Below are positions 47,723 through 64,000 of a DNA stretch of 64,000 nucleotides, piece after piece. The stretch lies in NCBI RefSeq assembly GCF_026163685.1, contig NZ_JAOXSR010000010.1, forward strand, positions 80,663 to 144,662. Direction: 5' to 3'. Within the stretch, counting starts at the first letter, position 1. Each line of letters starts with the position of its first letter. Both the position numbers and the translations under genes were made by a program. Source of the stretch: Oerskovia flava (GTDB taxonomy: Bacteria > Actinomycetota > Actinomycetes > Actinomycetales > Cellulomonadaceae). The notes under the pieces are model-generated. The model searched no databases. It saw only the letters and a list, made by a program, of their open reading frames with translations, and had not been told where the DNA came from.

Positions 47723-49884
47723 GGATCATCCCCGCTTGCGGGAACACGGGCCGACCTGCGAGTCGATCTTCGTGTTCGAGGGATCATCCCCGCTCACGCG
47801 GGGAGCACTGGAGGTCGCCGGCCAGCGGGCCGACCTTCGGCGGGTCATCCCCGCTCGCGCGGGGAGCACCTCGTAGACGAGGCCCATCGGCGCCGGCCCC
47901 CGGGATCATCCCCGCTCGCGCGGGGAGCACATGACGATGACGCCTCCGAGGGCCATGCCGATCGGATCATCCCCGCTCGCGCGGGGAGCACAGTCCGTGG
48001 CGCCGGTTCGTACTGGACGACGACGGATCATCCCTGCTCGCGCGGGGAGCACGCTCGGTCGGCCTCGCGTGCCTCGCGCGCCTTCGGATCATCCCCGCTT
48101 GCGCGGGGAGCACGGGACAACGTCAAGGGCGTGGGCTCGAGCATCGGGATCATCCCCGCTCGCGCGGGGAGCACTTGCGCGGAAGGTCTCGCCACCACGG
48201 GGACGCCGGATCATCCCCGCTCGCGCGGGGAGCACATCTCCTCGTACTCGGTGACCAGGGCGGGGTCGGGATCATCCCCGCTCGCGCGGGGAGCACTCGA
48301 TGCCGCGGCCTCGGACCGGCGCCTTCCGAGGATCATCCCCGCTCGCGCGGGGAGCACTTCCCCATGGGTGCGGGGAACATGCGTCGACCCGGATCATCCC
48401 CGCTCGCGCGGGGAGCACTCATTCCACGCCTTCAACAGCACGCCATAATCGGGATCATCCCCGCTCGCGCGGGGAGCACGTAGTCCGTCTGCGCGCAGAG
48501 GCGTTCGAGTTCGGATCATCCCCGCTAGCGCGGGGAGCACGCTGAGCGGTGGGGCAACATCGCGACTCAGCGGGGATCATCCCCGCTCGCGCGGGGAGCA
48601 CTGGCCGGTCAACGGTGCCGCGTTCGACCCGAAGGGATCATCCCCGCTCGCGCGGGGAGCACGGCACGGTGGCGACCGGTAGGGGGGTGGTGGTGGGATC
48701 ATCCCCGCTCGCGCGGGGAGCACTACGTCGTGGCCACCGGTTGCGGCACGGCCGCGGGATCATCCCCGCTCGCGCGGGGAGCACGTGGGCTCGAACATCG
48801 TGGGCGGCCTCAAGTCGGGATCATCCCCGCTCGCGCGGGGAGCACTCCGCACCCGCCAGGATCGCGTCCGCCAGCCGGGGATCATCCCCGCTCGCGCGGG
48901 GAGCACCCGAACGGGCTCACGAAGGCGCTCCTGCGGCAGGGATCATCCCCGCTCGCGCGGGGAGCACCCCGAACGTCAGGTCCGACTCCGAGATCGTCGT
49001 GGATCATCCCCGCTCGCGCGGGGAGCACGGCAGCGATCCGGGACTACGCGGCGTCGCACGGGGGATCATCCCCGCTCGCGCGGGGAGCACTTGACGATGT
49101 CGGCCTCGGTCGTGGCGAAGTTGGGATCATCCCCGCTCGCACGGGGAGCACGCCGAGACCGACGAGTGGCGGTACGGGGTCGCGGGATCATCCCCGCTCG
49201 CGCGGGGAGCACGGCAGCGATCCGGGACTACGCGGCGTCGCACGGGGGATCATCCCCGCTCGCGCGGGGAGCACTTGACGATGTCGGCCTCGGTCGTGGC
49301 GAAGTTGGGATCATCCCCGCTCGCGCGGGGAGCACGCCGAGACCGACGAGTGGCGGTACGGGGTCGCGGGATCATCCCCGCTCGCGCGGGGAGCACGTGC
49401 CCTCCGCAGTCGCCGCGTCGATGACGACCGGATCATCCCCGCTCGCGCGGGGAGCACCTGTTCCGCATGGTGGCTCAGCTCCCGGGCGAGGGATCATCCC
49501 CGCTCGCGCGGGGAGCACTTACCGGCGACCTTGGCGAGCGCGTCGGTGGCGGGATCATCCCCGCTCGCGCGGGGAGCACCACTACGCGAAGATCGCGGGC
49601 CCCACGTCGAACGGATCATCCCCGCTCGCGCGGGGAGCACTGCTGAGCCTTCCACGACATCCTGGGGACCTCCGGATCATCCCCGCTCGCGCGGGGAGCA
49701 CTCGATGACCACCTTCGACGTCTCCGCACGCAACGGATCATCCCCGCTCGCGCGGGGAGCACGGGATGCTGGGCGCGCCGGTGCCGGCGCCGGGGGGATC
49801 ATCCCCGCTCGCGCGGGGAGCACCGCGCGAGATGGGCATCACGTCCGGCGAGGTCGGGATCATCCCCGCTCGCGCGGGGAGCAC
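47723..49884 (-). CRISPR. Type I-E CRISPR array, leader-distal segment (about 36 repeats)
   Basis: 28-nt repeats on a 61-bp period with mostly 33-nt spacers. On the plus strand they read GGATCATCCCCGCTCGCG then CGGGGAGCAC, so the crRNA-sense repeat is on the minus strand and starts GTGCTCCCCGCG. The GC-rich inner palindrome is the usual I-E hairpin. The leftmost unit (47723-47747) is degenerate, lacking 3 nt. Others differ by single bases (47781, 47842, and those near 48035 and 48520). By period arithmetic there are about 36 repeats and 35 spacers. It ends where an IS481 element splits the next spacer. Confidence 0.98.
49029..49396 (-). repeat. 184-bp tandem duplication of three spacers and repeats
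   Basis: 49029-49212 and 49213-49396 are the same three spacer-repeat units in the same order. Spacer starts are GGCAGCGATCCGGG, TTGACGATGTCGGC and GCCGAGACCGACGA. They differ only at the middle repeat, which has A at 49141 against G at 49325. The first spacer of each copy is 34 nt. Homologous recombination between repeats, with one later mutation, explains this. Confidence 0.95.
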
Positions 49885-49902
49885 GCCTCCCCCAGATCGA
49901 GG

Positions 49903-49908
49903 GCTAGG
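49903..49908. repeat. Left target-site duplication (GCTAGG) of the IS481 element
   Basis: GCTAGG immediately precedes the IS left end, and the same six bases follow the right end at 51012-51017. Removing the IS and one copy leaves a 33-nt spacer between two intact repeats, exactly the normal spacer length. Confidence 0.9.
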
Positions 49909-51011
49909 TGTACTGACCGGAGACGTTGGTCGAGAGAGTGTGACGCGTTGATCTGAGTGGTAGCGCGCGAGGGCCTCCCGCGGTGGAGTGGAACTGCCTA
50001 GGTATCCGCTCCGCACACAGGAGGCCCTCGTGTCCCACGCTAATGCCGCGCTGACTCCCCGCGCCCGGCTGACGGTCGCCCGGTTGGTGGTCGACCAGCA
50101 CGTCCCGATCGCGGAGGTCGCGGCGCGGTTCCAGTGCTCGTGGCCCACGGTCAAGCGGTGGGCCGACCGGTATGCCCACGGCGAGCCGATGAGCGACCGG
50201 CCCTCGCGCCCGCACCGAATGCCTGCCAAGACCGACCAGGCCATCACGCGCCGGATCGTGTCGTTGCGGCTGCGCAAGCGTCTGGGACCCGTCCAGCTGG
50301 CTGCACTGACCGGGGTGGCGCCCTCGACCGCGCACCGGGTCCTGGTCCGCTGCCGGCTCAACCGGTTGTCCCACGTGGACCGGGCAACGGGCGCGCCGGT
50401 GCGTCGCTACGAGCACGCCTACCCCGGTGCGATGCTGCACGTGGACGTCAAGAAGCTCGGCAACATCCCCGATGGTGGCGGGTGGCGGTTCGTCGGCCGC
50501 GCCCAGGGTGATCGCCACCGAGCCGCCACGCCCGGCAAACCCAAGAACAGGCACCACAACCCGAAGATGGGGCACGCGTTCGTGCACACCGTCATCGACG
50601 ATCACTCACGGGTGGCCTACGCCGAGGTCCACGACGACGAGAGAGCCGTCACCGCGACCGGTGTCCTGCGCCGTGCAGTGGCGTGGTTCGCCGCGCGCGG
50701 GATCGTCACCGAGCGGGTGCTATCCGACAACGGCTCGCCCTACGTCTCGCGCCTGTGGCACGAGACCTGCGTCGAGCTCGAGATCAAACACTCCAGGACT
50801 CGGCCCCGCCGCCCCCAGACCAACGGCAAGATCGAACGCTTCCACCGCACCCTGGCCGACGGCTGGGGCTACGCCCGCTGCTACACCTCGGAAGCCGAAC
50901 GCCGCAACGCTCTGCCAGCATGGATCCACGAGTACAACCACCACCGACCCCACACCGCCAGCGGGAACAAGCCACCGGTCACCCGATTGACCAACCTGTC
51001 CGGTCAGTACA
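49909..51011 (+). mobile_element. IS481-family insertion sequence (1,103 bp) inside a CRISPR spacer
   Basis: Ends carry imperfect inverted repeats, TGTACTGACCGGA then GTTGGTC at left (49909-49931), matched by the reverse complement of 50989-51011 at 21 of 23 positions. TGT...ACA termini and a 6-bp target duplication fit IS481. It carries one transposase gene on the plus strand, opposite to crRNA transcription. It splits one spacer (49885-49908 plus 51018-51026), and everything to its left is cut off from the leader by 1.1 kb of IS DNA. Confidence 0.95.
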
Positions 51012-51016
51012 GCTAG
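50030..51016 (+). CDS. IS481-family transposase
   Basis: 328 residues from GTG 50030, which has AGGAGG 6-7 bases upstream. N-terminal HTH region (LTPRARLTVARLVVDQHVP, then FQCSWPTVKRWADRY) and rve/DDE integrase core: LHVDVKKLGN, VLSDNGSPYVSRLWHE and NGKIERFHRTLADGW, giving Asp-Asp-Glu. The C-terminus TASGNKPPVTRLTNLSGQYS reads to the IS tip. The last sense codon and the TAG stop (51014-51016) straddle the IS end and use bases of the target duplication. Frame intact, so probably active. Confidence 0.95.
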   Translation: MSHANAALTPRARLTVARLVVDQHVPIAEVAARFQCSWPTVKRWADRYAHGEPMSDRPSRPHRMPAKTDQAITRRIVSLRLRKRLGPVQLAALTGVAPSTAHRVLVRCRLNRLSHVDRATGAPVRRYEHAYPGAMLHVDVKKLGNIPDGGGWRFVGRAQGDRHRAATPGKPKNRHHNPKMGHAFVHTVIDDHSRVAYAEVHDDERAVTATGVLRRAVAWFAARGIVTERVLSDNGSPYVSRLWHETCVELEIKHSRTRPRRPQTNGKIERFHRTLADGWGYARCYTSEAERRNALPAWIHEYNHHRPHTASGNKPPVTRLTNLSGQYS

Positions 51017-51017
51017 G
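51012..51017. repeat. Right target-site duplication (GCTAGG) of the IS481 element
   Basis: Second copy of the 6-bp duplication. It also supplies the TAG that terminates the transposase frame. Confidence 0.9.
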
Positions 51018-51026
51018 GGCGGGGTT

Positions 51027-54000
51027 GGATCATCCCCGCTCGCGCGGGGAGCACAGTCCCGGCGACTACGGAAGCGGGGCGGCGAGGGGATCATCCCCGC
51101 TCGCGCGGGGAGCACCGATGCAGGCGAACGCCGTGGACCGCCTTGGGCGGATCATCCCCGCTCGCGCGGGGAGCACAAGGCGGGTTGGGACTGGATCTCG
51201 ACGAACGTGGGATCATCCCCGCTCGCGCGGGGAGCACGCCTACGCCGCTACGTGGGATGAGTGGGGCATGGGATCATCCCCGCTCGCGCGGGGAGCACGG
51301 GAGCGTCGAAGCGGAGCCAAACGGTCAGCGCGGATCATCCCCGCTCGCGCGGGGAGCACGTAGTTCCGCGGCAGGAGGAGGTGCACCAGCCGGGATCATC
51401 CCCGCTCGCGCGGGGAGCACACCACCGCTCCCCGCCCGCGTAGGCGGCGCCGGGGATCATCCCCGCTCGCGCGGGGAGCACCGTCCGTTCTAGTCATGGT
51501 GCCTCCCATAGGGCGGATCATCCCCGCTCGCGCGGGGAGCACCGCCGGCCCGTCGACGCCGAGCCGACGGTGAAGTTGGATCATCCCCGCTCGCGCGGGG
51601 AGCACCCCACCCTCGGGTTCGGCACGAACATCACGGACGGATCATCCCCGCTCGCGCGGGGAGCACGTAGACCTTCCCGTCGGTGGCGTCGCACATGGCG
51701 GATCATCCCCGCTCGCGCGGGGAGCACGATCTGAAGCTGCCGTTCGCGAACTCGGTCAAGGGATCATCCCCGCTCGCGCGGGGAGCACCATCGCTGCTCC
51801 TTGAGTCCGGGCCGCCACTCGGGATCATCCCCGCTCGCGCGGGGAGCACGTCGAGTACGAGTCGGTCGGCTACCCGCAAGACGGATCATCCCCGCTCGCG
51901 CGGGGAGCACCTGGCCAGCCTGCTCGAACGACCATTCGGAGGCGGATCATCCCCGCTCGCGCGGGGAGCACTTCCCCGTCCGCGTCACGGGTGAAGCGGT
52001 ACGGCGGATCATCCCCGCTCGCGCGGGGAGCACGAAGTGAGCGGGTTCGGCGAGGACGGCGCCCTGGGATCATCCCCGCTCGCGCGGGGAGCACACTAGG
52101 CGCTCCACGGTCTTGTCCGGGAGCTTCGGATCATCCCCGCTCGCGCGGGGAGCACCCCTGAGGAGGGTTCCCGATGGCCATCAACAACGGATCATCCCCG
52201 CTCGCGCGGGGAGCACATCGTCGGGGGCACCGACGACGATCCCCGTGTGGGATCATCCCCGCTCGCGCGGGGAGCACTAGTCGGGCTCGGTGATGGTCGC
52301 CTCGTAGACCGGATCATCCCCGCTCGCGCGGGGAGCACCGGGACTCGACGTCGAAGTCCTCGCCGCGGATCGGATCATCCCCGCTCGCGCGGGGAGCACG
52401 CAACGCATTGCACGATCCCAGCGGATTCATTCGGATCATCCCCGCTCGCGCGGGGAGCACGTGCCGATCATCGTTGGTCCGGTCACCCTGCCGGGATCAT
52501 CCCCGCTCGCGCGGGGAGCACTCCATGCGCTGGTAGGCCAGGACGCCGGCACCCGGATCATCCCCGCTCGCGCGGGGAGCACTGGCACGTGTTATCCCAT
52601 CCCTTCCTCGTACGGGGATCATCCCCGCTCGCGCGGGGAGCACCCGATCGCCGTCCGGAGCTTGCCGCCCCAGTTCGGATCATCCCCGCTCGCGCGGGGA
52701 GCACGGTCTCGTCGAGCTCGGCGGCACCGTGTACCTGGGATCATCCCCGCTCGCGCGGGGAGCACCGGCCGACAACGCGCACTTCAACGCAGGCGGCGGG
52801 ATCATCCCCGCTCGCGCGGGGAGCACGCACAGGGACCACGTGGAGTGGTGGTACTTCGAGGGATCATCCCCGCTCGCGCGGGGAGCACCGGCAGGTCGTC
52901 AACACCGCCGCACTGTCCGCCGGATCATCCCCGCTCGCGCGGGGAGCACGCGCTGTCGAGGACGAACCGCGAGCCCGAGTTGGGATCATCCCCGCTCGCG
53001 CGGGGAGCACGATCGACGGCCGGGGCGCGCTCACTGGTCGGCCGGATCATCCCCGCTCGCGCGGGGAGCACTGAAAAGGTATGAGCAGTTACCCAAATGG
53101 GGAGGGATCATCCCCGCTCGCGCGGGGAGCACCTCCAGCGGCTCGACGACCACGCGCCGCACCGCGGATCATCCCCGCTCGCGCGGGGAGCACGTGCCGA
53201 CGTCGGGCGACGCGGTACAGGTGCTCGGATCATCCCCGCTCGCGCGGGGAGCACCACTCCCGGACGGTCTCGGCCGCGGTGCGGGTCGGATCATCCCCGC
53301 TCGCGCGGGGAGCACCGGCACGGTGCGTACCGCGCCGGTCATCAGTGCGGATCATCCCCGCTCGCGCGGGGAGCACCGCTTGCAGACGTAGGCCGGGCGT
53401 GGCTACCCGGGATCATCCCCGCTCGCGCGGGGAGCACCATCGCGAAAGAGCTCGTGACCGGGATCTTCCGGGATCATCCCCGCTCGCGAGGGGAGCACAC
53501 GCCCACCTCCATGCTCGCCACGATGGCCGACGGATCATCCCCGCTCGCGCGGGGAGCACAAGGCCCTCGGGATCAAGTCCCCCTCGAAGGTGGGATCATC
53601 CCCGCTCGCGCGGGGAGCACGAGGTGTTGATCTGGAGTTGCGCCCAGAGGTAGGGATCATCCCCGCTCGCGCGGGGAGCACGAGCGTGATCGTGGGGGTC
53701 ATGGTTGATCGCCCGGATCATCCCCGCTCGCGCGGGGAGCACGACGTCGAGGCGGTGGCGCACACCTTGCGGAACGGATCATCCCCGCTCGCGCGGGGAG
53801 CACACTTCGACGTATCCCGGGTCACGCTCGTAGGGCGGATCATCCCCGCTCGCGCGGGGAGCACACGGCACCCGACCCGGACGCCGTCGACCGGTCGGGA
53901 TCATCCCCGCTCGCGCGGGGAGCACGTGACCTCGCCGGTCGTCTCGTCGATGCGGACCGCATCATCCCCGCTCGCGCGGGGAGCACGCGCGGAGCTTGGC

Positions 54001-56428
54001 CTGCGCCCCAGCCTTGGTCGGATCATCCCCGCTCGCGCGGGGAGCACGGCGGCGGTCTCGGCTACGCGTTCGCCGGCGGGGGATCATCCCCGCTCGCGCG
54101 GGGAGCACGATCTGGTCGGGAACCGCGTGCCAGATCTGAGCGGATCATCCCCGCTCGCGCGGGGAGCACTAACGAAGGGATTCATCATGACCGCTCGGAG
54201 ACGGATCATCCCCGCTCGCGCGGGGAGCACGGTGCCCCGGTCGCCGTCGCGTCCGGCGGGAACGGATCATCCCCGCTCGCGCGGGGAGCACAGCGGGGAG
54301 CGTGAGGGCGTACAGGTCAGCGTGGGATCATCCCCGCTCGCGCGGGGAGCACAGCGAGTGCGCGGTGCCGGGCACCCCGGCTCGCGGATCATCCCCGCTC
54401 GCGCGGGGAGCACGCACATCATTCGTGGTGTGGAATGGGAGCGTGTGGATCATCCCCGCTCGCGCGGGGAGCACTGGCACGTGTTATCCCATCCCTTCCT
54501 CGTACAGGGATCATCCCCGCTCGCGCGGGGAGCACGAGTGGCCCGCCGTGTAGTTGTCGTCCACGGCCGGATCATCCCCGCTCGCGCGGGGAGCACAGTC
54601 CCCGCGACCACGGAAGCGGGACGGCGGGGGGATCATCCCCGCTCGCGCGGGGAGCACCACTGGAGGACGTCTGAGCCCATGAACGCCCAGGGATCATCCC
54701 CGCTCGCGCGGGGAGCACCCGGTCAGGCTGGGCTTGATGCCCTCGACGGTCGGATCATCCCCGCTCGCGCGGGGAGCACTCGTCCTCGTCCACGACCTTG
54801 GCAGGGGTCAGGGGATCATCCCCGCTCGCGCGGGGAGCACGGGCTGTACGTGAACGGCAGGACGGCGCCGGCGGGATCATCCCCGCTCGCGCGGGGAGCA
54901 CTCCTCCTGGGGGGCGATGGAGGCGAGCAAGGACGGATCATCCCCGCTCGCGCGGGGAGCACAAGCTCAAGGCCATCGCCGCGCGCCCGGTGAACGGATC
55001 ATCCCCGCTCGCGCGGGGAGCACTTGAGCGGTTCGACGATGTACTCGACGATCGTCGGATCATCCCCGCTCGCGCGGGGAGCACGCCTCCCACATTCGAC
55101 GCGTGCGCTCCGCCAGGGGATCATCCCCGCTCGCGCGGGGAGCACGATGCGGTCGGATTTGTGCAGCGCGTTTACGGGGGATCATCCCCGCTCGCGCGGG
55201 GAGCACGTCGTCGTCAGCGTCCTCGCCGACACGAAGAAGGGATCATGCCCGCTCGCGCGGGGAGCACTCCGTGGCCGTCACCGTCGCGCAGCTCGCGTCG
55301 GGATCATCCCCGCTCGCGCGGGGAGCACCGTGACGGCGTCGTGGACCGCATGAGCGTCGGCGGATCATCCCCGCTCGCGCGGGGAGCACACCCCGGACGG
55401 CGGCACCCTCGAGGGCGACGTGGGATCATCCCCGCTCGCGCGGGGAGCACGGTCATCCGACCGTCACCTCCACCGATGCGAGGGGATCATCCCCGCTCGC
55501 GCGGGGAGCACTGGACCATCCGACCGAGCGCCGTGGTCGCCTTCGGATCATCCCCGCTCGCGCGGGGAGCACATGATGTCGCCTGCGGTGATCTGGGCGG
55601 CGGTCGGATCATCCCCGCTCGCGCGGGGAGCACAAGGGGACGGGCGATGGGGTGTACGAGGACGGCGGATCATCCCCGCTCGCGCGGGGAGCACGTCACC
55701 TACGTCCAGGCGGTCGACGTCGACACGGGATCATCCCCGCTCGCGCGGGGAGCACAGGGGGTCGACCACGGGGCCCTGAACCTCGAACGGATCATCCCCG
55801 CTCGCGCGGGGAGCACGTGTCGGGCGTTGGGTCGAAAGGCGGCTCGTCGGGATCATCCCCGCTCGCGCGGGGAGCACGTGCACCGTGGCGCCGGCGAACC
55901 GGGCCCCGAGGGGATCATCCCCGCTCGCGCGGGGAGCACGCCCGTAGACGTCGATCCCGCCGCCGGTGGTTGCGGATCATCCCCGCTCGCGCGGGGAGCA
56001 CTCGGCGGGGCGGGTGCGGTTGCGGCTGTGGTGGGGATCATCCCCGCTCGCGCGGGGAGCACGAAGCCCACCCCGAGTACACCGAGGTGCAGGTCGGATC
56101 ATCCCCGCTCGCGCGGGGAGCACACGACCGTCACGACCTGCGAGCGCTGGGACACCGGATCATCCCCGCTCGCGCGGGGAGCACGTGATCTCGGCGATCA
56201 GGTCGGAAACGGCGATGGGATCATCCCCGCTCGCGCGGGGAGCACGAGACGAAGGACTTCCCCGAGCTGTGGCAGGAGGGATCATCCCCGCTCGCGCGGG
56301 GAGCACCAGAACACGTTCAGTGCGGTGCCTGGTGCTGCGGGATCATCCCCGCTCGCGCGGGGAGCACAAGCTCAAGGCCATCGCCGCGCGTCCGGTGAAC
56401 GGATCATCCCCGCTCGCGCGGGGAGCAC
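51027..56428 (-). CRISPR. Type I-E CRISPR array, leader-proximal segment (about 89 repeats)
   Basis: The same 28-nt repeat on a 61-bp period, about 89 repeats and 88 spacers by spacing arithmetic. Repeats are nearly invariant; single-base variants lie near 53478 (GAGGGG), 53960 (C for G at base 2) and 55247 (G in the C-run). The leader side is at 56428, next to cas2, where the repeats are most regular. Three pairs of near-identical spacers link this segment to itself. Some spacers look like phage gene starts, for example 52156-52188 with AGGAGG and ATGGCC. Confidence 0.99.
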
Positions 56429-56472
56429 ACTAACTGACCTGCGAACATATCAGGATGATCAGGCTCCTGCGA
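56429..56472 (-). promoter_or_regulatory. CRISPR leader end between cas2 and the first repeat
   Basis: The 44 bp between the cas2 stop and the first repeat are the least GC-rich of the locus; on the minus strand the end reads CTGATATGTTCGCAGGTCAG and TTAGT just before the first repeat. It should hold the integration signals for Cas1-Cas2. The pre-crRNA promoter must lie here or within the 3' part of cas2, as there is no longer gap. Confidence 0.6.
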
Positions 56473-56997
56473 TCACTTCGACGGGTCGGCGCCCGGATCA
56501 GGCTCGCCACGCGAGTTGCGGCGCCTTTGCTCGATCGACGTCCCATACCGTCGCCGCCTCGATGCGTTGCTCCATCCTCTGCGGACACCAGAACTCGGGG
56601 GACGGTTGTCAGTCGTCGGGGTGGTGAGGTGATCGCTCTCGGAGGAAATGCCGCCTGACCGCGACCTTTCACGGTTCGAACGGCGGGCGCTGTCGTCCAA
56701 CTCGGCGGCGAACTTGCGCGACTCGGCGGTCTGTCGACGCATGAGCGTCACTCCGTCGTGGTCTGCAGTCTCCCACGCGTGGTTGTGGACGCGGAAGTCC
56801 AGCCTTTGCTCCGTCGTGGTGGACCACACCATGAGGGCGCGTCCGCGGCTCACGTCCTCGACGATGCGCAGCCACAAGAGCTCGCGAACACGGGCCGATA
56901 CGTGCCCGACGTAGACGCCGGCGGAGATCTCCAGCAGCCATCGGGTGAGCTCGCCGCGGAGCTTCTCCGGTGTCACGGACAGCACGACGACGATCAC
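56473..56997 (-). CDS. cas2: CRISPR-associated endonuclease Cas2, type I-E
   Basis: 174 residues from a GTG overlapping the cas1 stop (GTGA). Residues 1-90 are a standard Cas2e: VIVVVLSVTPEKLRGELTRW, LLEISAGVYVGHVSARVREL, then MVWSTTTEQRLDFRVHNHAW. A charged Ser/Arg-rich linker and the motif GWSNASRRRRYG (141-152) follow; a similar basic motif ends many actinobacterial Cas2e. The protein is longer than the usual 95-125 residues, and its 3' end reaches within 45 bp of the first repeat. It forms the spacer-integration complex with Cas1. Confidence 0.92.
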   Translation of the reverse strand: MIVVVLSVTPEKLRGELTRWLLEISAGVYVGHVSARVRELLWLRIVEDVSRGRALMVWSTTTEQRLDFRVHNHAWETADHDGVTLMRRQTAESRKFAAELDDSARRSNRERSRSGGISSESDHLTTPTTDNRPPSSGVRRGWSNASRRRRYGTSIEQRRRNSRGEPDPGADPSK

Positions 56998-57947
56998 CAG
57001 TCCGTTTCCTCGCCCGAGCCGTAGCTGACCCCGCCCGACACCGCTCCGAACCTGCCGTCCCAGAGCATCGAGACGTCCGCCCATTGGTCGAGCTCATTCG
57101 GATCCCTGATCAGCAGACTGGTGATGTCTCGCACGCACCGCTCCAGCAGCTTCGCCTTGTGCAAGCGGTCGCGCATGTCGCGACGCACGTGCCCTCCGAC
57201 ATCCGCGAGATCCTGTGCCGCGGCGTCGAACGCGGCGGGGATCGCAAACTCCGCCTTGTAGAGATCAGCAATGTCGTAGACGAACGACCTCTCGTGCCCG
57301 GTGTGCACGAACCCGAGCCCTGGTGAGCAGCCGAGTGCTACGACGACAGCGTGCACAACTCCGTACAGGCACGTCGTCGCAGCCGAGAGCGCTTGGTTCA
57401 CCGCGTCCGACGACCCGAAATCGTCGGGCCGATACTCCCGCCGCTCCCAGGGCACGCCCGTGCGTTGGGAGTGCTCTCGGTAGGACTTTCGGACTCTCGC
57501 GCCCTCCCGGCCGCGGAGCTGCTGCATCGTCAGGCCCGAGACCTCTTCGTCGGGGAATCGCATCTCGTACATCGCACGTGCGACAGCAAGTCGCGAATCG
57601 CGACGCGTCACGAGCTCAGCCTGCGCCTCGAGCAGACGAGAGGACTTGGCCAACGAGCGCCCGTGTGCGTAGTAGCGAACGCCGCGCTCCCCCACCCACA
57701 CGACGGTCGCCCCACTTTCGGCGAGCAGGACCATCGCCTGGTGCGTGACGTTCGTCCCGGGCCCGAGGAGAAGCGCGCCGAGCGTCGCGGCCGGGACGTG
57801 CACCGTGCCGCGCTCATCGGTAGCCGTGATCGCGCTCGCGTCGCGCGAGATCACGCACCGTTCGAGGTACAAGAACGTCAGGCGGTCCTGGGCGCGCACC
57901 AGCTCCGGAAGGGTCGGCGGGCGCGCGCCCGGGATCTGTTGGTTCAT
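56994..57947 (-). CDS. cas1: CRISPR-associated integrase Cas1, type I-E
   Basis: 317 residues; the ATG at 57947 overlaps the cas6e stop (ATGA). RLTFLYLERCVISRDASAI and YYAHGRSLAKSSRLLEAQAE are typical Cas1e. Catalytic residues are present: Glu148 in LRGREGARVRKSYRE, His215 in GLGFVHTGHERSF and Asp225/Asp228 in VYDIADLYKAEF. It inserts new spacers at the leader end with Cas2. An intact active site suggests the array can still grow. Confidence 0.97.
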   Translation of the reverse strand: MNQQIPGARPPTLPELVRAQDRLTFLYLERCVISRDASAITATDERGTVHVPAATLGALLLGPGTNVTHQAMVLLAESGATVVWVGERGVRYYAHGRSLAKSSRLLEAQAELVTRRDSRLAVARAMYEMRFPDEEVSGLTMQQLRGREGARVRKSYREHSQRTGVPWERREYRPDDFGSSDAVNQALSAATTCLYGVVHAVVVALGCSPGLGFVHTGHERSFVYDIADLYKAEFAIPAAFDAAAQDLADVGGHVRRDMRDRLHKAKLLERCVRDITSLLIRDPNELDQWADVSMLWDGRFGAVSGGVSYGSGEETDW

Positions 57948-61202: not shown

Positions 61203-62908
61203 GCCATGACCTCCTCGTCGTCGACTCTCTTCGTCTGTTCCACGGCTTGCGGCGGGTAGCTGTGGGGCAGGATCTCTCGCAACTTCTTCCGGAACCTGTA
61301 CTCGGCCAAGCCGGCGTCCATGTACTGGTCGCCGACCATCCGCCCGACGACCGCACCAGGGCCGGCATCTGCAATGACCTCACCCGCCAGGCGTGACAAG
61401 ACGGTCTGCACCTGCACCTGCCATCGGGTGCGCGCGTCGACCTCGTCGGCCGTGACCGCAAGGGTGCGGAGCCACTCCCGGAACGGGCCGTCGAGAGCGT
61501 CGAACCCGCGTTCCCTCGCGCGCTCCTGCGGTCCCTCGGCAGCGTCGGGTGATGCGCCTGCGGCGCGTGCGACGTTCTGCGCGAGGTAGCCGAGGTGGAG
61601 CACGGCCTTGTCCGCCTGGTCGACGGCATCGACGGCGCTCTGCGCAAGCCCGGCAGCGGACTCGCTCAGGAGTGACAGAGATAGAGACAACTTGTCGTCG
61701 ATGACGGCACCGATCGCTGTCTGGTTGCTCTCGTACGTCGCACCGATGGCGCGTACACCGACGAGCCGGTCGTCGAGCATGCCGGAAAGCTGCAAAGTCC
61801 GCAGCCACGTGACGACCGCCGGCACCAACCGCTCCGACTGCCCGTCCTTGGTCCTTCGTTCGGTCGCGTGCGGCAGGAGCGACTCGAGGCCACGCCACAG
61901 CGCACGCCCGGGGACGAGTTCGAGCGGCATGTAGACGGGCTTCTTAAACTTCGCCGTCTGAGGCTTGGAGTGTCGCCAGGAGGTGAGCGGTTCGAGTCGT
62001 TGCCTGAACTGCGGCGTGGCTCGGTCTCCTTGAGCGTTGACGACGCCCGTCACGTAGGCCTCGTCGCCGACGAGTCGGACTCGGCGAGACTGCCAGGTGT
62101 AGAGATCAACAGGCCCGGTCGGCTCACGGTAGAGGTGATTGGCGGCGTCGGACTCCAACCAGTCTTCCGGGCGGGCGTCCAGCGGGGGCCGCTCCCAGAC
62201 AGGCTTGTCGGGCTGCCGCGTCTCCAGCCCTGACCTGCCGGCGACCACAAGGTTCAGCATCAGCGTCTCCTGGAGGGTGTCACCGACGAGGTGGATGCCT
62301 CCGATCTGGCCCGCCCACCCGGTCCCGATCGGATACCCCTTCCCTCCCTTGACGCGTGGGTCCCCGACTGCGCCGGAATGGATGCCCGACACGTCGTACG
62401 CGTGGACATGGACGAGCCAGCGCGCGGCCTCCGCCCAGGTGATCCGGCTCAGTCCCTCCCCCAACCGTGTCGTCAGGTAGGCGGAGTTCCCGGGGCCGTC
62501 AGCGATGATCTCCGCAGGAGACTTCAGCTCGCCGTTCGTGCTCTCGAGCCCCGCCACCTGGAAGAACGGTTCCGTGGCATGAACGAGCCAGAACCGGTCC
62601 CGGAAGCGTTCCAGGTACTGCTCCACGCGCTCGACGGTCGAAGACCAGTTGCTGCGGATCTCACCCCATTCCTTCTCGCTACGTGGCCCTGTCTCGCGAC
62701 TCGTTCCGACGGCGCGGTGCAGGATCGCGAGGAGCAGGCGAAGGTTCGCGAACGTCTGCGTCGGCAGCTCGCCGGTCAGCTCACGTAGCTCCCCGGCACG
62801 ACGAAACGCGTCGACGAGCGAAAGGTCCGTCTGCTGCCCTTGGTGGTCGAGCGCGGGTAACCAGGCGCTGTCGATCAGGTTGAACCACGGGGCGAGATCT
62901 TCACTCAT
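61199..62908 (-). CDS. cse1: Cascade large subunit Cse1 (CasA, Cas8e)
   Basis: 569 residues. [20 protein letters not shown] is the N-terminal Cse1 signature, with [29 protein letters not shown] and [16 protein letters not shown] further on and a helical C-terminal bundle. It recognises the PAM and recruits Cas3. The ATG overlaps the cas3 end by 8 bp. Confidence 0.95.
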
Positions 62909-64000
62909 GCAGGCTCACGCTCATTCCTGTGCGGCGGTCGTAGCGGATATCGAGTCCGGCCACGCAGGCACGGCCGGTGCGGTCGAGGGACAGGACGAGC
63001 TGCCCCTTCAAAGCCGGGTGCTCCTGCCAGGCGTCCCGCACGTCTACTTCCAGTGCTTCGATGAGATCGGCGACGGGGTCAGGCATTCCGTGCCGACGCG
63101 GGAGGAAGCCAGGCAACCGCACGCTGCATCCCGCGAGCGTGCGCAACTGCGCCGCCCGGGGCACACGATCTCGGGGGAGCTCCCGATCCTCGGGTACGTC
63201 GCGGTCGAGCCAGTCGGGCAGTCTCCACTGGTCTGCGCCGTCGGTCTGGACCACCAGGACCTCGATGCCGTCCTCTCCGTCACGCACCTGCGCCCGTCCT
63301 GAAGACTCGTCCGCCTCTCCGACGCTCTGGTCGAGCCATCCCACCAAGTTGGCCTCTGACCCGGCCGCCGGGGCCGGGAGCCGATAAGTCGCCGCGCGTG
63401 ACTCGGCATGGCGTTCTCTTGCATCGGAGCTCGAGCGGGCACGGAGCATGTCGTCCTGCCACGTGTCAGGCCCGAGTGCATCCTCGCCATATGCCTCTTG
63501 GACCAACGGCGAGATGTGACGTGGTAGCTCGATACCTCCCGAGCCAGCGATGATGTTGCGGACCTGCGCGGCTGCTCGAAGCAGCAGGTGCCTCCCGTAG
63601 ACGGCTTCGCTCCCCCGGGGGAAGGCCGGTGGGCCGCCTGCGCGGTCCGTCATGCCGACGATCACGATCCGGGCCACTCGTAGCTCCTCGGGTCGGTGGT
63701 CCGCAGGACGGGCGTGGCGGTGGAGCCGGCCGACGCGCTGGAGCAACAGATCGGTCGGTGCGAGATCAGTGACAAGGAGGTCGAAGTCCACATCGAGGCT
63801 TTGCTCCACGACCTGGGTCGCCACGACTATCCGGCGTACGACGGGTCGCGCTCCCCTCGTGCCATCGGCTGGCGGCGGTCCGAGCTCCCTCACCAACTGC
63901 GCCTCACGCACCTTGCGGTCCAACGCGAGGAACCGAGAGTGCAAGAGCTCGACCTCGTCGCCAAAGTGCGCTTCGAGCGCCTCGTACGTCTCTTGCGCGC
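62901..64000 (-). CDS. cas3: CRISPR-associated helicase-nuclease Cas3 (partial, cut by window edge)
   Basis: The C-terminal 365 residues are visible and the frame runs off the window at 64000. Superfamily 2 motifs: [35 protein letters not shown] (motif V) and [15 protein letters not shown] (motif VI). The C-terminal domain follows to MSVSLHE. The HD nuclease and motifs I-IV lie outside. Cas3 nicks and degrades DNA marked by Cascade. First gene of the cas operon as seen here. Confidence 0.95.

What the first reader, a model, noticed from the sequence alone, without database searches (positions are those of the whole stretch)
54963..56400. The newest spacer is a one-base variant of a spacer 23 units older
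The leader-adjacent spacer 56368-56400 (AAGCTCAAGGCCATCGCC...) equals spacer 54963-54995 except T for C near the end. Recombination would give identical copies, so this looks like independent acquisition of the same protospacer from a related, mutated invader, at the same 33-nt register.
Basis: partly seen in the sequence, partly recalled or inferred. Interest (0 to 1): 0.6.

Follow-up and report, generated by a model that had tools for sequence, protein, structure and literature searches.

The report
Twice-sampled phage site in CRISPR array
A bacterium's CRISPR memory holds two nearly identical entries that most likely were taken at different times from the same spot in the tail gene of two related viruses; this is a well-resolved case of a known kind of event, not a copying artefact.

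Summary
Leader-adjacent spacer 56368-56400 equals spacer 54963-54995, 23 units older, except C/T at position 24 of 33. It is not alone: three more dispersed same-register pairs differ by 1, 4 and 8 bases, plus one offset overlap.

Both spacers encode KLKAIAARPVN. Homologous sites lie in the tape-measure gene of tailed phages, at a conserved motif PVN|F...TVY. The Phe codon TTC beside the site acts as PAM (5'-AAS on the other strand), which explains the fixed register. The change is CGC/CGT, synonymous in that gene; both codons occur at this position in viral contigs. Nearest viral sites differ by 6 of 33 bases; no exact protospacer was found. The host genome showed no such gene. A spacer in another genus lies on the same site.

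Independent re-acquisition from diverging phages is the best explanation. Internal copying cannot be formally excluded without sister strains. A birthday estimate shows that random sampling of about two phage lineages gives this many coincidences, so neither hot spot nor priming is needed. Known kind of event, unusually well resolved.

The parts
47781..56428 (-). type I-E CRISPR array, 124 repeats, leader at the right end (transcribed right to left)
   Evidence: conserved leader flank
54963..54995 (-). older spacer #99 (C allele), tape-measure site KLKAIAARPVN
56368..56400 (-). newest spacer #122 (T allele), same site
52583..52615 (-). spacer #60, one mismatch from #91 (crRNA nt 1)
54475..54507 (-). 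spacer #91, partner of #60
51055..51087 (-). spacer #35, four mismatches from #93, all synonymous in one open frame
54597..54629 (-). spacer #93, partner of #35
49397..49429 (-). spacer #26, eight mismatches from #82
53926..53958 (-). spacer #82, partner of #26
51177..51209 (-). spacer #37, tape-measure motif AGWDWISTNV, 4 mismatches to L051 with TTC flank
51728..51760 (-). spacer #46, probable second tape-measure site (9 mismatches to L051, TTC flank, in frame)
49458..49490 (-). spacer #27, probable further tape-measure site (9 mismatches to L058, TTC flank, in frame)
49029..49368 (-). exact tandem duplication of three units (#20-22 = #23-25), the internal control for copying
56429..56640 (-). 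leader side of the array
56473..57084 (-). ORF containing cas2e
   Evidence: TIGR01873
56994..57977 (-). cas1e
   Evidence: TIGR03638
57944..62908 (-). cas6e, cas5e, cas7e, cse2, cse1
   Evidence: NCBIfam matches above cut-off
62901..63944 (-). part of cas3, running out of the window
   Evidence: matches below the curated cut-offs because only part of the gene was given

Best explanation
The type I-E system sampled the same site of a phage tape-measure gene twice, from two related but diverged tailed phages, at two times 23 insertions apart. The site is a conserved protein motif (KLKAIAARPVN followed by Phe). The Phe codon TTC, read on the other strand as GAA before the PAM-derived last base, gives the PAM 5'-AAS; spacers are cut at a fixed distance from the PAM, so the same 33-nt register results each time. 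Shown: the pair, the leader polarity, the homologous PAM-bearing site in viral contigs and prophages, no such gene found in the host, and a spacer on the same site in another genus. Inferred: that there were two separate acquisitions, and that the two phages differed by a silent CGC/CGT change. Repeated random sampling of about two phage lineages is enough to give the observed number of coincidences.
For: Site and PAM: (real spacers: 21 of 67 distinct hits at 8 or fewer mismatches have TTC; reversed decoys 0 of 11; triplet-shuffled decoys 0 of 23). Peptide control: of 1013 spacers open in this frame, the two window spacers (9 of 11 residues) and L020 index 38 (8 of 11) are the top three; the next has 6. 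Tape-measure assignment. One such site per locus in 86 of 86 loci, so not two paralogous copies in one gene. Not self. Both Arg codons seen in viruses: CGT in 2 and CGC in 1 of 71 distinct sites. Graded divergence of the other pairs. Leader polarity.
Against: No exact protospacer; nearest viral sites are 6 of 33 bases away. No exact or coded match in GTDB genomes or phage records. A single synonymous change is no proof: a random change is synonymous in some open frame with probability 0.93. The 80 loci were fetched with a motif that includes PVN|F, so part of their agreement with #99/#122 was selected for; the first hit was not. Without #37, #99 and #122 only 1 of 8 distinct window hits at 7 or fewer mismatches has TTC. 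Dispersed exact duplicates in relatives show that lone identical units can recur without telling how.
Confidence: 0.87

Rival explanations
1. Copying within the array: unit #99 was moved or converted to the leader end, or array DNA was captured by Cas1-Cas2, and one base then changed.
For: Internal duplication happens here (exact triplet #20-22 = #23-25). L025 28/29 is an adjacent pair with one mismatch, and L014, L022 and L023 hold dispersed exact duplicates.
Against: The recognisable duplication in this array is an exact tandem block. #99 and #122 share no neighbours. In the array the base triplet after #99 is GGA, not TTC, so captured array DNA would lack the PAM. Other pairs differ by 4 and 8 bases. 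The changed base gives a codon that viruses carry.
Confidence: 0.08
2. Primed re-acquisition: the old, imperfectly matching spacer recruited the machinery to the mutated phage and so caused the new insertion at or near the same site.
For: Type I-E system with cas1e, cas2e and effector genes present. Three of four pairs differ within crRNA nt 1-8; a C1T change is tested as an escape mutation in E. coli (PMC4288178, passages), and #60/#91 differ at nt 1. The Legionella authors suggest priming for overlapping spacer pairs (PMC5071653, passages).
Against: The pair in question differs at nt 9, the edge of the seed (described there as the first 8-10 nt), so the old spacer may still have worked. The number of coincidences needs no priming. 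A refinement of the main reading rather than its opposite.
Confidence: 0.25
3. Assembly or sequencing artefact: one allele or the order of units is wrong.
For: Draft assembly of 22 contigs across a 124-unit repeat array.
Against: Genome listed as 99.99% complete with 0.08% contamination. Neighbouring spacers differ, the codon made by the T allele occurs in independent viral contigs, and three other divergent pairs exist.
Confidence: 0.03
4. Two paralogous copies of the motif within one phage gene were sampled.
For: The tape-measure W-repeat motif of #37 recurs within one gene (L047).
Against: The PVN|F site of #99/#122 occurs once per locus in 86 of 86 viral loci.
Confidence: 0.02

Closest known systems
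Independent acquisition of matching spacers in Sulfolobus islandicus (Held et al. 2010, PMC2946923; passages read)
   Same: Spacers that match one another but sit in different contexts, explained as separate acquisitions from a shared virus pool; one shown example carries two SNPs.
   Different: 41 pairs, 37 of them offset, nearly all between divergent strains; here the pairs lie within one array and four are in exact register, with PAM and gene named for one.
Overlapping spacer pairs against one element in Legionella (PMC5071653; passages read)
   Same: Older and newer spacers hit overlapping regions of one element; the authors offer priming as one interpretation. Two independent spacers against one plasmid protospacer were also obtained in the laboratory.
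   Different: Overlap rather than exact register; other CRISPR subtypes.
Reacquisition events in SpacerPlacer (PMC11472070; passages read)
   Same: Recognises reacquisition and independent insertion of a spacer as event types.
   Different: Counts repeated spacers (8 reacquisitions and 7 independent insertions among 805 duplication candidates of 24,090 spacers), not diverged alleles of one site.
Preferential matching of certain viral genes by spacers (Nasko et al. 2019, PMC6401485; abstract and outline only)
   Same: Recurrent spacer matches to particular viral genes, structural ones included.
   Different: Gene-level marine survey; here one nucleotide site is sampled repeatedly and no enrichment of the gene is claimed.

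Membership tests
Type I-E CRISPR-Cas | Cas1e, Cas2e, Cas5e, Cas6e, Cas7e, Cse1, Cse2 genes beside the array | tested here: met
   NCBIfam matches above curated cut-offs
Type I-E CRISPR-Cas | Cas3 | tested here: inconclusive
   ORF at the window edge matches Cas3 models below the curated cut-offs; the gene runs out of the window
Type I-E CRISPR-Cas | 28-29 nt repeat, 32-33 nt spacer, PAM-derived base at the repeat border, AAG-like PAM | tested here: met
   61-nt unit; last base G or C in 118 of 122 spacers; TTC flank 30 observed, 2.7 expected
Independent re-acquisition of one protospacer | Near-identical spacers in unrelated contexts of the array | tested here: met
Independent re-acquisition of one protospacer | Protospacer with PAM in a foreign element | tested here: met
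   Homologous, not exact, site with TTC in viral contigs and prophages
Independent re-acquisition of one protospacer | Each allele found exactly in an invader | tested here: not met
   Nearest 6 of 33 mismatches; patterns found no exact allele
Independent re-acquisition of one protospacer | Order of events shown by sister strains | not testable with these tools
   The genus is represented by this genome alone among the 221 family genomes
Internal array duplication | Copies share neighbouring units or lie in tandem | tested here: not met
   #99 and #122 share no neighbours; compare the exact triplet #20-22 = #23-25
Primed adaptation | Old spacer raises acquisition from the mutated target | not testable with these tools
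   Needs an adaptation assay; mismatch positions are only compatible with it

The most novel reading that the evidence does not exclude
The array is an ordered record of phage lineages diverging: spacer pairs on one site differ by 1, 1, 4 and 8 bases at separations of 23, 31, 58 and 56 units. The conserved Phe codon of the tape-measure motif supplies a PAM that the phage cannot easily lose, so hosts of different genera keep landing on the same site and renew it, possibly by priming, as it drifts.
Probability: 0.2. Interest if true: 0.6.

Novelty: new member of a known kind. Interest (0 to 1): 0.38.

Why it matters
Within one array it shows what is most likely the same phage site captured more than once while the phage drifted, and for one pair it names the gene, the motif and the PAM. 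A PAM that is itself a conserved codon of a tail protein explains the fixed register and the use of the same site by two genera. If divergence proved to grow with distance in many arrays, long arrays could be used to time phage evolution. The birthday estimate offers a simple null: the number of same-site coincidences tells how few phage lineages feed an array.

Tried and rejected
Phage records (INPHARED): the array and three single spacers gave no credible protospacer; best E 0.04 for the array and 0.03 for #99 (24 of 26 bases in a Caulobacter phage). Weak hits below the listed rows were not inspected.

Degenerate peptide patterns in IMG/VR: KLKAIAARPVN 0, VPATTEAGRR 0, ARVIPSLPRT 0, FTGRAAMALS 0, RRPASVVAGT 0. 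In GTDB genomes: KLKAIAARPVN 0 and a relaxed site pattern 0. The relaxed site pattern in IMG/VR gave 3 contigs, already held. The #37 peptide pattern gave 7 contigs and opened the way to the tape-measure gene.

Synonymy as proof: rejected for single changes (null 0.93 and 0.94); #35/#93 has weak weight (0.05); #26/#82 none (0.93). A tape-measure hot spot is not claimed: 5 of 119 distinct spacers were placed there (#27, #37, #46, #99, #122), a number shaped by how the loci were fetched. Two paralogous copies in one gene: rejected for this site, open for #37. Protospacers of #60/#91, #35/#93 and #26/#82 were not established.

Rate against relatives: 4 of 7381 spacer pairs here, 2 of 40,030 in 18 arrays of 16 genomes (Fisher P 0.007; 0.014 if the adjacent L025 pair is counted). 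The comparison was made after the pairs had been seen; one of the two relatives' pairs is offset by one base; 2 of the 18 other Cas1e genomes gave no array. By nucleotides alone the L020 spacer is not distinctive (9 of 32 mismatches, as is L014 index 41); the peptide comparison separates them.

Full report
Observation. The window holds a type I-E array of 124 repeats at 47781-56428 with I-E cas genes to its right; cas3 runs out of the window. The leader is on the right: the sequence after the last repeat begins ACTxxxTGACC in the window and in the four relatives compared. Spacers #99 (54963-54995) and #122 (56368-56400) differ only at position 24 (C/T). An all-against-all comparison of the 122 spacers shorter than 60 nt found an exact tandem triplet (#20-22 = #23-25), four dispersed same-register pairs, #60/#91 (1 mismatch), #99/#122 (1), #35/#93 (4) and #26/#82 (8), and an offset overlap #5/#16. 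The next same-register distance is 14. In 200 base shuffles the minimum was 9; in 1000 triplet shuffles 8 or less was reached in 5.

Finding the protospacer. Phage records gave nothing credible, nor did codon-degenerate patterns of the pair's own peptides. Comparing the window's spacers with 1017 spacers from 18 arrays of 16 family genomes gave one cross-array match at 9 or fewer mismatches: L012 index 38 and window #37, peptides RAGWDWIGRNV and KAGWDWISTNV. A pattern for that peptide hit 7 IMG/VR contigs. In L051, #37 matches with 4 mismatches and TTC after it. Filtering for TTC showed #99 in L047 with 11 mismatches in the same frame (KVKEAAAKPVN|F), in the same gene family. The L051 protein matches many PHROGs tail tape measure families; its top hit is a long family labelled endolysin.

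More viral sites. A search with the aligned gene region kept the best 80 of 351 relatives; with the earlier ones, 86 loci and 1.37 Mb, some from the same contig. #99 matches L058 with 6 mismatches (GLKAIAANPVN|F); #122 matches L061/L062 with 6 (ALKEVAARPVN|F, codon CGT) and L064 with 7 (CGT); all have TTC next. A prophage of family genome G176 has 6 mismatches to both. Among 71 distinct viral sites the next codon is TTC in 41, TAC in 18, and TTT, TAT and TGG in 4 each; the codon at the changed position is CGT in 2 and CGC in 1. Each of the 86 loci has one such site. The motif used for fetching includes PVN|F, so part of this agreement was selected for; the first hit was not.

PAM. TTC follows 30 of 228 hits at 9 or fewer mismatches, 2.7 expected. 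At 8 or fewer, 21 of 67 hits have TTC; reversed decoys 0 of 11, triplet-shuffled decoys 0 of 23; at exactly 9 one of 131 triplet-shuffled decoy hits has it. Without #37, #99 and #122 only 1 of 8 distinct hits at 7 or fewer has TTC, so within the window the signal rests on few spacers. Relatives' spacers against the same loci and prophages add to it: TTC is the commonest flank for L012 (5 of 23), L013 (16 of 111), L014 (7 of 34) and L039 (3 of 11) and joint commonest for L018 (5 of 55), but not for most of the other arrays; hits on homologous loci are not independent. The last base of 118 of 122 spacers is G or C. Together this gives PAM 5'-AAS.

Not self. Allowing 3 mismatches, the alleles occur in the 221 family genomes only in this array. 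The host genome gave no tape-measure match at 1e-12 (14 of its 24 first-look candidates were scored); 8 of 221 family genomes did.

Same site elsewhere. L020 (genome G001, another genus) has spacer index 38, SIQDAARKPVN, ending at the same PVN|F border. Of 1139 spacers, 1013 are open in this frame; the best three agreements with the 72 site peptides are the two window spacers (9 of 11) and this one (8 of 11); the next has 6. So the site was used at least twice by different genera, and three times if the main reading holds.

How it most likely works. The Phe codon TTC of a conserved motif is the PAM on the opposite strand. When a phage of this group enters, Cas1-Cas2 may cut there, always in the same register. 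Two phages that differ silently (CGC/CGT) gave #99 and #122. With 784 [GC]TTC sites per 40 kb on both strands, 119 distinct spacers from one lineage would give 9 coincidences; 4 observed correspond to about 2.2 lineages (95% range 0.9-8.2). No hot spot is needed. The estimate assumes 40-kb genomes and even use of sites, and misses pairs too diverged to see.

Rivals. Internal copying does occur (tandem triplet here; L025 28/29 with one mismatch; dispersed exact duplicates in L014, L022 and L023). Against it here: lone position, different neighbours, graded divergence of the four pairs, and no PAM at the array copy (next bases GGA). Priming is compatible but not needed: this pair's change is at crRNA nt 9, the edge of the seed as described in PMC4288178 (passages), while #60/#91 differ at nt 1, the position of the C1T change tested there. 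Numbering takes the last spacer base as PAM-derived.

Literature. Searches found precedents, read as passages: Held et al. 2010, Legionella, SpacerPlacer; Nasko et al. as abstract and outline; V. cholerae I-E passages had nothing on mismatch tolerance. None of the parts read describes a same-register divergent pair with its PAM in a conserved codon; I did not read whole texts, and most subscription papers are not held.

Verdict.

Noticed in passing
49885-51026: A spacer is split by an insertion carrying an IS481-family transposase (ORF 49988-51016); GCTAG stands at both borders and the outer pieces add up to 33 bases. That IS481 elements favour CTAG targets is recalled.
   Followed up: partly
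48358-48390: Spacer #9 resembles part of an I-E repeat (TGTTCCCCGCACCCATGGGGA when reversed), as if taken from a foreign CRISPR array; the plasmid search gave only weak hits, 4 of 7 records being Streptomyces (best E 0.9).
   Followed up: partly
49029-49368: Exact tandem duplication of a three-spacer block (#20-22 = #23-25); one of the repeats has a single variant base.
   Followed up: partly
49152-49184: Spacer #22 matches viral contig L055 at 13236 with 5 mismatches and TTC after it, outside the tape-measure frame.
   Followed up: no
L014, spacer indices 16/65 and 37/81: Two dispersed exact single-spacer duplicates with different neighbours in a related genome: exact re-acquisition or movement within the array.
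   Followed up: no
L013 index 144; L014 index 18: Spacers of related genomes match viral contigs with 4 and 5 mismatches and a TTC flank, a lead to phages of this family.
   Followed up: no
L051, L061, L062, L064: Four of the contigs that best match tape-measure spacers come from two adjacently numbered metagenomes, 3300028531 and 3300028532, perhaps the host's habitat.
   Followed up: no
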